From Montifringilla adamsi (taxonomy: Eukaryota; Chordata; Aves; Passeriformes; Passeridae), in assembly GCA_017590115.1 (NCBI GenBank), contig JAGGNK010015447.1, positions 2,339,075 through 2,403,074 of the forward strand: a stretch of 64,000 nucleotides of DNA, written 5' to 3'. Below are positions 17,999 through 23,996 of the stretch, piece after piece (within the stretch, counting starts at the first letter, position 1; every line of letters begins with the position of its first letter). A program made the position numbers and the translations under genes. Below the pieces are notes generated by a model. It worked only from the letters and a program-made list of their open reading frames with translations, was not told the DNA's origin and ran no database searches.

Positions 17999-20466
17999 AG
18001 CCCAAAATGAGTTTACAGCCCTTTGTGCCACAGCTGGGGGATCAGCTTTGCCTTGGGGTGTCCCCATGTGGGGTGGAGCCGTTGTCGCTGTCCCTTGATG
18101 CTGATAGAACAAACGTGGGATTACCTGGAGATTGAGTTCCATGAAATCTCGTGTTTTCCTTGGAGATAAGGGCAGAACTGCAGCAGGTGCTTTTTATTTC
18201 CATCACTTTTTTGGACCTGGGTGACCCCATGACCCCCATGATCCCAAATTCCAGTGCCTGTGCCTCGGGGGCCAATGTCCCCCCCAGAACAACCTCCATT
18301 TGGAGTTCAAGGGGGGAAAAATGACAGTGTTTTGGCCAAAACTCCAGGGTTTCTTTCAAAGCCTATCGCTGCCCCATTCTGCCCCAAGCTCAGCGCCAGG
18401 GAGGCCGAGCCCCGGCCCTGCTCCAGCGCTGGCTGTGCCGGGGGCTAGGGGAGGGGCTGAAGGTCGAGCCCTGCTTGTGCCTCGATTTTCCAGTCCCGGT
18501 GCCAACGTGGCTCCACTCAGGTGCCGGATCAAGCCCTGGGAGCCGTCCCACAAGCCGAGGCCGGGGAGAGCTGCAGCCAAGGCCTGCCGGGGCTGAGAGC
18601 GGGAGCCAGCGGTGACACGGCAGCGGGGCACGGGGACAGGAGGTGCCAGCGCAGGGCAGCGTCTCCCTGGGGTGCAGCGCCGAGGGGCGCTCGGGCTGTC
18701 CCTGGCGTGTCCGGGCGCCCTGTGTGCTTTGGCAGAGAGGCCAAGGCCGCTCGGCGGGGCCGCGGCAGCTGCTTCCCTTCCCGCGCCTCCTCCCGCGGCC
18801 CCGTTAAAGCGCCCGCGGGGCCGCCGCTCGCTCCCACCGCGGACACCGCTCCACGATGATGCTGCAGCTCGTGCTCCTCGCCGCGCTCGCCCTGTGCGGT
18901 GAGTCCCGCCCGGAGCCTTCGGCCTCGGCACCTCCCGAAAGCCCCCCCGAGCCACGGCCGGGGGGACTCACGCCGTCCCTCTGTCCCCAGGGCGCTGCTC
19001 CGAGCTGGATCTCGATGGCATGCAGCGGGTGGTCGGCGGCACCGAGGCGCGCTCGCACGCCTGGCCCTACCAGGTGGGTCCTGCCGGGCTCCCACGGCCG
19101 CTGCCGGGGCTCTCCCCGCGCCGGCAGCCCGCGCTCAGCCCCGGCCCGTGTCTCGCTCCCTGCCCAGATCTCCCTGCAGTATTACTCCGGGGGCAGCTGG
19201 CACCACACCTGCGGGGGCTCCCTCATCCACAGGAACTGGGTGATGACCGCCGCCCACTGCGTCAACAAGTGAGCGCGCCGGGGAGCCCTCCTTCCCCTCC
19301 ACAGAGCTCCTTTCCCCCAAAAACCCTCCCAGGCAGAAACCCTGGCTGCCCCAAGCGCCAGAGCGGCCGCCCTCGGAGCGCTTTTGGGCTCCTCAGGCAG
19401 GGCCTCCACGGGGCTGCTCCGGGAGCGTCCCCTGCCCGCTCGGAGCCTCCCGGAGCAGCTCACGCTCGGCACGAGCGGGGCTCGGGGCTCACGGAGCGCT
19501 TCTGCACCTTGCCGGCAGTAACATGAACTACCGTGTGGTGGCCGGCGAGCACAACCTCAACAGCAACGAGGGCAGCGAGCAGGTCTTCAGCGTCAGCAGG
19601 ATCGTCGTGCACCCCTACTGGAACAGCAACAACGTGGCCGCGGGGTAACGCCCGCGGGAGGGGCACCTGGGGGGAGCCCGGCCGGGGTTTCGGGGAGGGG
19701 TCCTTGTAACATCCTCTCCCTGCCGCCGGCAGCTACGACATCGCCCTGTTCCGCCTGAGCAGCCCCGCCACCCTGAACAGCGCCGTGCAGCTGGCCGTGC
19801 TGCCCCAGGAGGGCACCATCCTGCCCAACAACTACCCCTGCTACATCACGGGCTGGGGCCTGACCCGCAGTGAGTGACGGGCTCCCCCGCCCCAAATTCC
19901 CCCGCTACCGGCTAGCGCCGGCAGCCGCGGCAGCGCTTAGAGTCCTTGGCGGCCCCGGCAAGCTCCTCTCGGGGCTCCGCTCGGGACCCGCAGGTGCCCA
20001 GCGCCGGCTGGGGCCGTGCCGAGCCTTGGGGGGCCGGGCGGGCCCGCAGGGGCTCGGCGGGGGCCGCGGGCTCTGCTTTGGCCGGGCCCTTGCGGCGTGC
20101 GGCGGCTCCGCGGCGGCGCTGACCGGCGGCGGCTCCGCGCAGGCCACGGGCAGCGGGCCGGGCTCAGCCCCGGCGCTCTCGGGCCAGCCGAGAGCCGGCC
20201 CCGGCCCCGCGCGGCTCAGCCCGGCCCTTTCTCCCTTCCAGGTCATCGCCCAGAACTGAGCCCGGCGGGACCAGCGCTCGCTGCCCCTCGCCCACGGCCG
20301 TCCCCTCACTCCCCCCCGCCGCGCTCCGGGCTCCTCGCACCCGAGCCGGCCTCAATAAAATCTCTCCTCCCGTCTCTGTGCCTCCGTGCTGCCTTGTCCC
20401 GCGCCCGCCCAGCCTTCACCCTCAGGGCTGCCATCCTCCTCCCGCGCCCAGCTCCCTCACCCGCCC
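17999..20466 (+). repeat. Left arm of ~2-kb inverted repeat (CELA1)
   Basis: Nearly identical, in reverse complement, to 22168-23996. The matching frames at 18042-18359 (minus) and 23636-23953 (plus) are identical over about 318 bp. This arm contains about 1034 bp (18469-19502: promoter plus exons 1-3) absent from the other arm, and lacks about 395 bp (exons 6-7) present there. A few substitutions separate the arms, e.g. near 19939. Confidence 0.95.
18856..20259 (+). pseudogene. CELA1: CELA1 copy A, chymotrypsin-like elastase 1, lacking exons 6-7
   Basis: Pancreatic secreted serine protease (S1 family). Exons: 18856-18898 (signal peptide MMLQLVLLAALALCG), 18991-19073 (ends in the activation site RVVGGTEARSHAWPYQ), 19168-19268 (catalytic His in TAAHC), 19519-19644, 19733-19869 (catalytic Asp in YDIALF), and the tiny last exon 20242-20259 (VIAQN, TGA). 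Only 12 nt of exon 6 remain before a junction near 20154. All of exon 7, with the catalytic Ser in GDSGGP, is gone. Exon 5 ends in phase 1 and exon 8 starts in phase 0, so direct splicing shifts the frame. A poly(A) signal is at 20354-20359. As assembled this copy cannot make active elastase. Its plus orientation is opposite to the human locus. It could be a real rearranged copy or an assembly product. Confidence 0.85.
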
Positions 20467-21049
20467 TTCCCCGCCTCCTCCTCTTCCTCACTCCTCAGGG
20501 AAGAGCCCTGGGGACCAGCAGCTGCCTCCGAGCTCTCGGGGCAGCCCCAACGTCTGCGGGATGCTGGAAAAGGGGGGAAAGTTGCAAATCCCCTTCCTGG
20601 CCCCCGAGACAATCGCCCCTTGGCTATGCGGGGGCACACAGAGCATTCGGGGCTAGCCCTATCCCCATGTTCCCTGGCACTTGCTCCATTGCTCTTCCCC
20701 AATTTCCCTCCTTGGCCGTGAGAGATGTAGGATTCGGGCACTGCCACCTCCTCGTCCCTCAGCTGCGTCCTGGGGCTGTGCCACAGCCCCCCAGACTGGG
20801 GACACTCCGCCAGCACCGACGTGCCCCAAACACGCAGGTTACACCCGAACAGACACTGCCGGCTGCATCCAGCGGCCGCTGGGAGTTCCTCTCACTCCTG
20901 GGTCGTGTCCTGCTCAACAAAACACCCACGTACCACAGGAGGGCTCTCCCAGCACTGGGGGGGCACAGGAGCAGTGGCTGCGCCTGGCACTGCTGAAGCC
21001 CCCGGGGGCTGGGTCCAGCTCTGCCCCTCCCAGCAAGAAAAACACCGGG
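20467..21049. other. Spacer of the inverted repeat, left part
   Basis: Moderately GC-rich sequence between the CELA1 arms. No exon was recognised. Some open frames exist without splice or family support. Confidence 0.35.
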
Positions 21050-22167: not shown

Positions 22168-23996
22168 GGCGGGTGAGGGAGCTGGGCGCGGGAGGAGGAT
22201 GGCGGGCCGGAGGGTGAAGGCTGGGCGGGCGCGGGACAAGGCAGCACGGAGGCACAGAGACGGGAGGAGAGATTTTATTGAGGCCGGCTCGGGTGCGAGG
22301 AGCCCGGAGCGCGGCGGGGGGGAGTGAGGGGACGGCCGTGGGCGAGGGGCAGCGAGCGCTGGTCCCGCCGGGCTCAGTTCTGGGCGATGACCTGGAAGGG
22401 AGAAAGGGCCGGGCTGAGCCGCGCGGGGCCGGGGCCGGCTCTCGGCTGGCCCGAGAGCGCCGGGGCTGAGCCCGGCCCGGCACGGAGCGGCGCGGCGCGG
22501 CCGCCTTACGCTGTTGATCCAGGAGATGTAGGCGGAGACGCGGGTGAACACGGTGGGCTTGCGGGCGACGTTGCAGCCCTGGCTGGACACGAAGCTGGTG
22601 ACGCCGTGCACCTGGTACTGCCCGTTGACGGCGCAGTGCAGGGGACCGCCGGAATCGCCCTGCGGAGCGAGGAGCGGCGTGAGCCGGGGCTGCGGGGGGC
22701 GGCGGGGGCGGCGGGGGCAGCGCGGGGGCCGCGGGCGGACCTGGCAGCCGGAGCGCACGCCGTCGCCGCCGGCGCACACCATGGTGTTCTTGACGGTGGA
22801 GCCCCAGTAGGACGCGCTGGAGCAGATCTGGTAGTCCACGACGGGCAGGTAGGCCTGGAGCAGGACGCTGGACAGCTGCCCGTTGCCTGCGCGGAGCCGC
22901 CGCCGGTCAGCGCCGCCGCGGAGCCGCCGCACGCCGCAAGGGCCCGGCCAAAGCAGAGCCCGCGGCCCCCGCCGAGCCCCTGCGGGCCCGCCCGGCCCCC
23001 CAAGGCTCGGCACGGCCCCAGCCGGCGCTGGGCACCTGCGGGCCCCGAGCGGAGCCCCGAGAGGAGCTTGCCGGGGCCGCCAAGGGCTCGGAGCGCTGCC
23101 GCGGCTGCCGGCGCTAGCCGGTAGCGGGGGAATTTGGGGCGGGGGAGCCCGTCACTCACTGCGGGTCAGGCCCCAGCCCGTGATGTAGCAGGGGTAGTTG
23201 TTGGGCAGGATGGTGCCCTCCTGGGGCAGCACGGCCAGCTGCACGGCGCTGTTCAGGGTGGCGGGGCTGCTCAGGCGGAACAGGGCGATGTCGTAGCTGC
23301 CGGCGGCAGGGAGAGGATGTTACAAGGACCCCTCCCCGAAACCCCGGCCGGGCTCCCCCCAGGTGCCCCTCCCGCGGGCGTTACCCCGCGGCCACGTTGT
23401 TGCTGTTCCAGTAGGGGTGCACGACGATCCTGCTGACGCTGAAGACCTGCTCGCTGCCCTCGTTGCTGTTGAGGTTGTGCTCGCCGGCCACCACACGGTA
23501 GTTCATGTTACTGCCGGCAAGGTGCACTCGACCTTCAGCCCCTCCCCTAGCCCCCGGCACAGCCAGCGCTGGAGCAGGGCCGGGGCTCGGCCTCCCTGGC
23601 GCTGAGCTTGGGGCAGAATGGGGCAGCGATAGGCTTTGAAAGAAACCCTGGAGTTTTGGCCAAAACACTGTCATTTTTCCCCCCTTGAACTCCAAATGGA
23701 GGTTGTTCTGGGGGGGACATTGGCCCCCGAGGCACAGGCACTGGAATTTGGGATCATGGGGGTCATGGGGTCACCCAGGTCCAAAAAAGTGATGGAAATA
23801 AAAAGCACCTGCTGCAGTTCTGCCCTTATCTCCAAGGAAAACACGAGATTTCATGGAACTCAATCTCCAGGTAATCCCACGTTTGTTCTATCAGCATCAA
23901 GGGACAGCGACAACGGCTCCACCCCACATGGGGACACCCCAAGGCAAAGCTGATCCCCCAGCTGTGGCACAAAGGGCTGTAAACTCATTTTGGGCT
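22168..23996 (-). repeat. Right arm of ~2-kb inverted repeat (CELA1)
   Basis: Reverse complement of 17999-20466 apart from two large indels. Here 'gtcgag' of the upstream region joins directly to 'tgcaccttgccggcag' before exon 4 (junction about 23526/23527), which removes the promoter and exons 1-3. The exon 6-7 segment is retained. Confidence 0.95.
22374..23510 (-). pseudogene. CELA1: CELA1 copy B, exons 4-8 only
   Basis: Minus-strand exons: 23385-23510 (NMNYRVVAGEHNLN...), 23160-23296 (catalytic Asp in YDIALF), 22741-22886 (ends GGDGVRSGCQ), 22510-22659 (catalytic Ser in GDSGGPLHC, then VTSFVSSQGC and KPTVFTRVSAYISWI, typical of the elastase S1 pocket), 22374-22391 (VIAQN, TGA). Poly(A) signal at 22274-22279. 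All splice sites and phases are intact. Signal peptide, activation site and catalytic His are absent because the sequence upstream of exon 4 jumps into the CELA1 promoter flank. Orientation matches the human locus and flanking BIN2/GALNT6, so this is probably the ancestral position. Together the two copies contain every expected exon once or twice. Confidence 0.85.

What the first reader, a model, noticed from the sequence alone, without database searches (positions are those of the whole stretch)
17999..23996. CELA1 is present as two inverted copies with complementary deletions
The left arm keeps exons 1-5 and 8 and lacks exons 6-7 (about 395 bp). The right arm keeps exons 4-8 and lacks the promoter and exons 1-3 (about 1034 bp). 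Catalytic His occurs only on the left and catalytic Ser only on the right. Neither copy alone encodes an active protease, yet all exons exist across the pair. Arms are nearly identical but carry real substitutions, so this is either a recent palindromic duplication that decayed in a complementary way, a polymorphic inversion/duplication, or a mis-assembly of two haplotypes.
Basis: partly seen in the sequence, partly recalled or inferred. Interest (0 to 1): 0.8.

Follow-up and report, generated by a model that had tools for sequence, protein, structure and literature searches.

The report
Elastase gene split into inverted halves
In what is probably a songbird genome assembly, the digestive-enzyme gene CELA1 appears as two back-to-back partial copies, neither able to make a working enzyme; it looks like a small inversion-with-duplication or an assembly error, and raw reads are needed to tell which.

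Summary
Two inverted CELA1 copies lie at 17996-20466 (+) and 22167-23999 (-), 99.4% identical where shared. The left lacks exons 6-7, the right the promoter and exons 1-3; His57 is only left, Ser195 only right. All exons together give an intact 267-aa CELA1, with no change at 146 positions conserved in a bird sample, so no decay is visible.

Gene models of three other birds that run past CELA1 suggest the ancestral layout: CELA1 on the minus strand, right flank upstream, left flank downstream, and the spacer S downstream on CELA1's own strand. Here S reads plus, so the block 17996-22166 is turned round. S ends inside an interspersed repeat whose remaining ~430 bp is missing.

This fits an inversion that duplicated one end, plus two near-blunt deletions. 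It also has the shape of an overlapping or other-haplotype contig joined in flipped. The scaffold carries near-identical duplications at gap edges, though no gap lies near this one. In a block model, a crossover in the shared exon 4-5 block would make one copy whole. Real versus artefact is roughly even; reads decide.

The parts
17996..18468 (+). Outer arm block O, left copy (upstream of the CELA1 promoter)
   Evidence: Inverted repeat with 23527-23999, 472 of 473 identical
18469..19502 (+). Block P: CELA1 promoter region and exons 1-3 (18856-18898, 18991-19073, 19168-19268); only in the left copy; carries catalytic His
   Evidence: missing in the right arm at 23526/23527 with 0 bp microhomology
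19503..20154 (+). Block M left: exons 4 (19519-19644) and 5 (19733-19869), intron 5, first 12 bases of exon 6 (Asn to His)
   Evidence: Inverted repeat with 22875-23526, 5 internal mismatches
20155..20466 (+). Block I left: end of intron 7, exon 8 (20242-20259), 3' end
   Evidence: Inverted repeat with 22167-22479, 3 clustered mismatches at 20424-20429; exons 6-7 missing at 20154/20155 with 2 bp microhomology
20467..22166 (+). Spacer S: apparent native 3' flank of CELA1, in + orientation here, i.e. turned round; ends inside a truncated interspersed repeat (alignable from 21865; LTR-like by recall)
   Evidence: Zosterops CELA1 C-terminal extension matches 21363-21463 (+); two of three other repeat copies continue about 431 bp past the point matching 22166, the third in part
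22167..22479 (-). Block I right: exon 8 (22391-22374), end of intron 7
22480..22874 (-). Block E: exon 7 (22659-22510, catalytic Ser) and most of exon 6 (22886-22741); only in the right copy
22875..23526 (-). Block M right: exons 5 (23296-23160) and 4 (23510-23385)
23527..23999 (-). Outer arm block O right, joined directly to the last 16 bp of intron before exon 4
24442..24552 (-). Native 5' flank marker (N-terminal stretch of a Ficedula CELA1 model)
   Evidence: tblastn 84% over 37 aa, E 2e-17; best of 200 shuffles 3e-5
17240..17392 (-). Native 3' side marker: matches the extension of a Buteo CELA1 model; overlaps a putative BIN2 first exon (ATG at 17339)
   Evidence: tblastn 55% over 51 aa, E 1.5e-11; best of 200 shuffles 8e-6; the BIN2 name is recalled, no call named it

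Best explanation
This is a real rearranged CELA1 locus. Ancestrally one minus-strand CELA1 lay between its right flank (GALNT6 side, upstream) and its left flank (BIN2 side, downstream), with the spacer S directly 3' of it. An inversion with an inverted duplication copied the gene (blocks O to I) and turned one copy together with S round. Staggered breaks joined by end-joining, or one replication template-switch event, would do this. Two near-blunt deletions, in the same event or soon after, removed exons 6-7 from the turned copy and the promoter with exons 1-3 from the copy on the native 5' flank. As written CELA1 is null on this haplotype. Spliced from exon 5 to exon 8 the left copy changes frame, loses Ser, and stays open past the AATAAA at 20354-20359, so its message may lack a stop; the right copy has no CELA1 promoter, signal peptide or His. 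Shown: the anatomy, the intact composite, and a spacer turned relative to other birds' gene models. Inferred: that the DNA is really so arranged, the mechanism, the order of events, and the fate of the messages.
For: Inverted copies, complementary losses and canonical splice sites. No gap between or beside the arms: within the 264 kb read the nearest N runs are over 17 kb away. Of the 5 inverted self-matches (at least 200 bp, 95%) in that 264 kb, the 3 of this palindrome are the only ones not at a gap edge. No indels and 8 internal substitutions between the arms, with open reading frames, which speaks against uncorrected long-read error. Microhomology is 0 bp at the P deletion and 2 bp at the E deletion, as end-joining or template switching leaves. 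The spacer is turned relative to both flanks: Ficedula marks the 5' side at 24552-24442 (-), Zosterops the spacer at 21363-21463 (+), Buteo the 3' side at 17392-17240 (-), each far beyond 200 shuffles. The one answered whole-assembly search found exon 4 only in these two arms. Inverted duplications ascribed to staggered breaks are described in Drosophila, including inversion 2q, where the copied gene lacked its first exon and upstream sequence (PMC3355041, passages).
Against: No reads were available. The scaffold is cut by N runs into pieces of about 9-64 kb in the 264 kb read, and gap edges carry near-identical duplications: 2426330-2426838 / 2427276-2427782 on either side of a 437-N gap, and two inverted ones at a 22-N gap. 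The inner junction of the right arm cuts an interspersed repeat whose remainder is missing; contig ends often fall in such places. An exon of a neighbouring gene is also duplicated at 99.3%. Two further deletions in so young a copy pair is a lot to ask unless all arose in one event. The turned spacer rests on one Zosterops model with two short matches (22 and 14 aa, different frames). Copy number of CELA1 in other birds was not established.
Confidence: 0.48

Rival explanations
1. Assembly artefact. A contig of about 4.2 kb (17996-22166, carrying O, P, M, I and S) overlaps the next contig (I, E, M, O and the right flank), or is the other haplotype, and was joined in flipped instead of merged. 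The two missing parts are then heterozygous deletion alleles or local consensus losses.
For: Flipping 17996-22166 back restores the ancestral strand of the spacer (inference). The block ends inside an interspersed repeat. Near-identical duplications sit at gap edges in the same scaffold, and another exon in the window is duplicated. The composite gene is intact. False heterotype duplications were the main source of the 4-16% falsely duplicated sequence in previous assemblies of platypus, zebra finch and hummingbird (PMC9516828, abstract and passages), and sequence missing from earlier assemblies is biased to GC-rich promoters and 5' exons (PMC9516821, abstract).
Against: No gap between or near the copies, one of the hallmarks named in PMC9516828. 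The two measurable deletion junctions share only 0 and 2 bp, which k-mer or overlap assembly would not produce by itself. The missing parts (P and E, 73% GC) are no richer in GC than the retained M (73%) and I (76%), so GC does not single them out. Exact arrays (13 copies of 103 bp; a 99% array of 62 x 46 bp) suggest that long reads were used.
Confidence: 0.37
2. Crossover between arms. The duplication first gave an intact left copy and a doubly deleted right copy; then one non-allelic crossover between the inverted M blocks turned the interior round and split the gene into two halves, as inversions do at human F8. The change would be reversible.
For: Block bookkeeping: crossovers in O, M and I all turn S back to minus, but only one in M gives a complete copy (O P M E I) and one with both deletions. 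The M arms share a 435-bp identical run from 19503. Inversions mediated by inverted repeats often recur: 11 of 16 analysable ones in PMC3961182 (passages).
Against: Needs one event more than the inversion-with-duplication model, which already explains the turned spacer. The spacer orientation does not point to M rather than O or I. No second orientation has been seen.
Confidence: 0.1
3. Fold-back duplication followed by deletion of the palindrome centre, which removed the native spacer next to the right copy; no inversion took place.
For: Explains the spacer orientation and its cut at an arbitrary point inside a repeat. Palindrome centres are deletion-prone (general knowledge).
Against: Needs a third deletion besides P and E.
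Confidence: 0.05

Closest known systems
Inversions with inverted duplications from staggered breaks (Drosophila mojavensis 2h, 2q; PMC3355041, passages)
   Same: DNA duplicated in inverted orientation on either side of a turned segment; partial gene copies result; end-joining type origin
   Different: Here the turned spacer is only 1.7 kb, duplication is at one end, and the two gene copies lost complementary parts
Factor VIII inversions in haemophilia A (cited in PMC3961182; mechanism details recalled)
   Same: Inverted near-identical repeats allow one crossover to split or rejoin a gene
   Different: Here the repeat is itself part of the gene (exons 4-5), and no second orientation has been observed
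False heterotype duplications in genome assemblies (PMC9516828, passages)
   Same: Near-identical copies of one gene side by side
   Different: The published hallmark of a gap between copies is absent; copies are inverted; read depth and k-mers untested
Silent human CELA1 (PMC4961393, passages)
   Same: CELA1 output lost in a vertebrate (not expressed in adult human pancreas)
   Different: Human silencing is described as transcriptional; here the coding sequence is split

Membership tests
CELA1 (chymotrypsin-like elastase, peptidase S1) | Best match to solved and bird CELA1 along the full length | tested here: met
   Composite: E 1.6e-130 to CELA1 8b04; 94% to a Corvus moneduloides CELA1 record over 100%
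CELA1 (chymotrypsin-like elastase, peptidase S1) | Catalytic His, Asp and Ser in one gene copy | tested here: not met
   Left has His and Asp; right has Asp and Ser. Each copy is a partial CELA1
Inversion with inverted duplications (staggered breaks, end-joining) | Inverted duplicates flank the turned segment | tested here: met
   Arms flank S
Inversion with inverted duplications (staggered breaks, end-joining) | The duplicated DNA was single-copy before | tested here: inconclusive
   Exon 4 found only in the two arms in this assembly, but the protein search gives no copy number in other birds, and a few birds have two CELA1 records (e.g. Rhinopomastus)
Inversion with inverted duplications (staggered breaks, end-joining) | Segment between the duplicates turned relative to the ancestor | tested here: met
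   Zosterops, Ficedula and Buteo extensions; protein-level only, and the spacer itself rests on the Zosterops model alone; no outgroup DNA
Inversion with inverted duplications (staggered breaks, end-joining) | Little or no homology at the inversion junctions | not testable with these tools
Inverted-repeat (NAHR) inversion | Long near-identical inverted arms | tested here: met
   M 652 bp, O 473 bp, I 312 bp, 99.4% overall
Inverted-repeat (NAHR) inversion | Both orientations exist in the population or between species | not testable with these tools
   No reads, no bird DNA collection
False heterotype duplication | Gap between the duplicated pair | tested here: not met
   No N between 2339075 and 2402728 of the contig
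False heterotype duplication | Half read depth and one-copy k-mers | not testable with these tools
   No reads available

The most novel reading that the evidence does not exclude
A reversible gene switch by inversion: a palindrome whose arms are part of the gene, so that one crossover in the shared exon 4-5 block toggles the chromosome between an intact CELA1 (with a doubly deleted sister) and two dead complementary halves. Both states would segregate or recur in the species.
Probability: 0.08. Interest if true: 0.65.

Novelty: new member of a known kind. Interest (0 to 1): 0.33.

Why it matters
If real, it is a small natural case of a gene split by an inversion-with-duplication in a vertebrate. 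In a block model one crossover in the shared exon block would give a complete copy, so toggling of gene function by inverted repeats could be tested directly in a bird population. It would also be a CELA1 loss in a group where CELA1 proteins are on record for many species. If it is an artefact, it shows how a flipped small contig and two missing pieces can pass as gene loss in a draft bird assembly.

Tried and rejected
Complementary decay of two old copies: not supported. The composite has 0 changes at 40, 41 and 65 conserved positions in exons 1-3, 4-5 and 6-7. That used 33 bird proteins that I chose from 136 fetched (birds and non-birds); many partial or badly predicted bird models were left out, and the two split codons and exon 8 were not scored. 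The test is not sharp: of the 8 other birds scored the same way, 4 also have 0 and the others have 2 to 5.

A third intact copy elsewhere in the assembly: the exon-4 query found only the two arms. The same test with blocks P and E did not complete.

Annotated proteins with the left copy's altered C-terminus: none at E <= 0.001, among the 7993 candidates scored. No protein matched the right-copy product better than 94% (118 rows at E <= 1e-80), so the species' own record was not identified; clustering at 90% could hide it.

Continuity of spacer and left flank: I expected the repeat cut at 22166 to continue at 17995. It does not, and its remainder occurs in the 264 kb only at the other copies. 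A loss-free inversion is therefore not shown.

Of the 136 proteins used as tblastn queries, 6 gave hits at E <= 1e-3 that touch no CELA1 exon. Three were used as markers. P0018 and P0021 look like intron-7 read-through. P0006 (28% identity, gapped) I judged spurious.

Pfam found nothing in 2 of 2 presumed BIN2 pieces and in 2 of 3 presumed GALNT6 pieces, so those gene names rest mostly on recall. Two paper searches for CELA1 with bird and pseudogene or loss listed 3 and 2 papers, none with a title on it (listings only). A survey of how common such palindromes are in more of the genome could not be done.

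Full report
What is there. The window holds two inverted partial copies of CELA1. In block terms, left to right: left flank, O, P, M, I (plus strand, 17996-20466), spacer S (20467-22166), then I, E, M, O (minus strand, 22167-23999), right flank. P is the promoter region with exons 1-3 (1034 bp, left only). E is exons 6-7 (395 bp, right only). Shared blocks total 1437 aligned bases with 8 internal differences (a ninth at 17998 lies at the edge) and no indel; exons 4, 5 and 8 are identical. 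The differences are clustered: 4 in intron 5, 3 near the 3' end, and 1 in the exon 6 remnant of the left copy, where Asn becomes His.

What it encodes. Exons 1-5 of the left and 6-8 of the right copy give an uninterrupted 267-aa protein with GT-AG splice sites throughout, matching solved CELA1 (8b04, E 1.6e-130) and bird CELA1 (94% to Corvus moneduloides). Of the 7 rows with 90% identity or more, 6 are songbirds and one is a crane, so the source is probably a songbird; no call names it. At 146 positions conserved in a 33-protein bird sample the composite has no change; 4 of 8 other birds scored alike also have none. The left copy alone, spliced from exon 5 to exon 8, changes frame, loses Ser195 and stays open past the AATAAA at 20354-20359. 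The right copy has no promoter block, signal peptide or His57.

Which way round it was. I used bird gene models that run past CELA1 as markers of the neighbouring DNA. Of 136 fetched proteins, 6 hit the window without touching a CELA1 exon at E <= 1e-3, and three are informative. The N-terminus of a Ficedula model matches 24552-24442 on the minus strand, so the right flank is the native 5' side. The C-terminal extension of a Zosterops model matches 21363-21463 on the plus strand, so S is natively downstream of CELA1 on CELA1's own strand. The extension of a Buteo model matches 17392-17240 on the minus strand, so the left flank is the native 3' side. Real E-values were 3e-7 (Zosterops), 2e-17 (Ficedula) and 1.5e-11 (Buteo); the best of 200 shuffles each were 2e-3, 3e-5 and 8e-6. 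The native gene is therefore minus, and S, now plus, is turned round together with the left copy. The claim about S rests on one model with two short matches. It agrees with the human order BIN2-CELA1-GALNT6-SLC4A8, which is recalled; calls found only a galactosyltransferase-type domain (PF02709, minus) and anion-exchanger domains (PF07565, PF00955, plus) on the right side.

Breakpoints. The P deletion has 0 bp and the E deletion 2 bp of microhomology. S ends at 22166 inside an interspersed repeat (LTR-like by recall). Three other copies lie within 264 kb at 85-87% identity. Two of them continue about 431 bp further and the third has parts of that stretch; none of it is in the window. Some native DNA between S and the left flank is therefore probably missing.

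The assembly. The window lies at 2339075-2403074 of a 2,535,333-base contig in a genome of 1,028,896,467 bases and 846 contigs. Eight N runs of 1 to 10088 bases occur in the 264 kb read. Gap edges carry near-identical duplications, direct and inverted. The palindrome is more than 17 kb from any of these gaps, and among 5 inverted self-matches in the 264 kb its 3 are the only ones not at a gap edge. Exact arrays (13 copies of 103 bp) suggest long reads contributed. An exon with a GALNT-like sequence is also duplicated at 99.3% in this window, which lowers trust in local copy number. The only exon-4 matches found in the assembly are the two arms.

How it most likely arose. One inversion with an inverted duplication (staggered breaks, or template switching) plus two near-blunt losses explains the layout with few steps. 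Drosophila 2h and 2q are precedents (PMC3355041, passages). The same layout results if a roughly 4.2-kb overlapping or alternative-haplotype contig was joined in flipped; false heterotype duplications are documented (PMC9516828, abstract and passages). The missing parts are no richer in GC than the retained shared blocks, so GC dropout alone does not explain them. A third reading is a crossover between inverted arms: crossovers in O, M or I all return S to minus, but only one in M yields a complete gene. Recurrence of inverted-repeat inversions was reported for 11 of 16 analysed in humans and apes (PMC3961182, passages). I give real-as-written 0.48, artefact 0.37, M crossover 0.10 and fold-back 0.05.

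Consequence. As written, CELA1 is null here. CELA1 is not expressed in adult human pancreas (PMC4961393, passages), and Cela1 deficiency is reported as protective in a mouse emphysema model (PMC11100728, abstract passage), so a loss may be tolerable.

Verdict. Reads across four named junctions would settle it.

Noticed in passing
window 30702-30997 and 32523-32818: An exon with GALNT-like sequence (GALNT6 by recall, minus strand) is present twice, 99.3% identical over 296 bp, on either side of a tandem array; either a recent exon duplication or a local assembly fault.
   Followed up: partly
window 31018-32356: Thirteen exactly identical copies of a 103-bp unit between the two copies of that exon, a strikingly homogeneous minisatellite.
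   Followed up: partly
contig C834 2426330-2426838 and 2427276-2427782: About 510 bp at 97.7% identity on both sides of a 437-N gap: a likely false duplication of contig ends.
   Followed up: no
contig C834 2467155-2468814: Both edges of a 22-N gap are inverted copies (98.4% and 95.3%) of sequence elsewhere in the scaffold (2280596-2281038 and 2472817-2474006).
   Followed up: no
contig C834 2454015-2456361: Gap-free head-to-tail tandem duplication of 1175 bp at 99.5% identity.
   Followed up: no
window 63655-63807: The only N run in the window (153 N), between TTCC and CCTC simple repeats.
   Followed up: no
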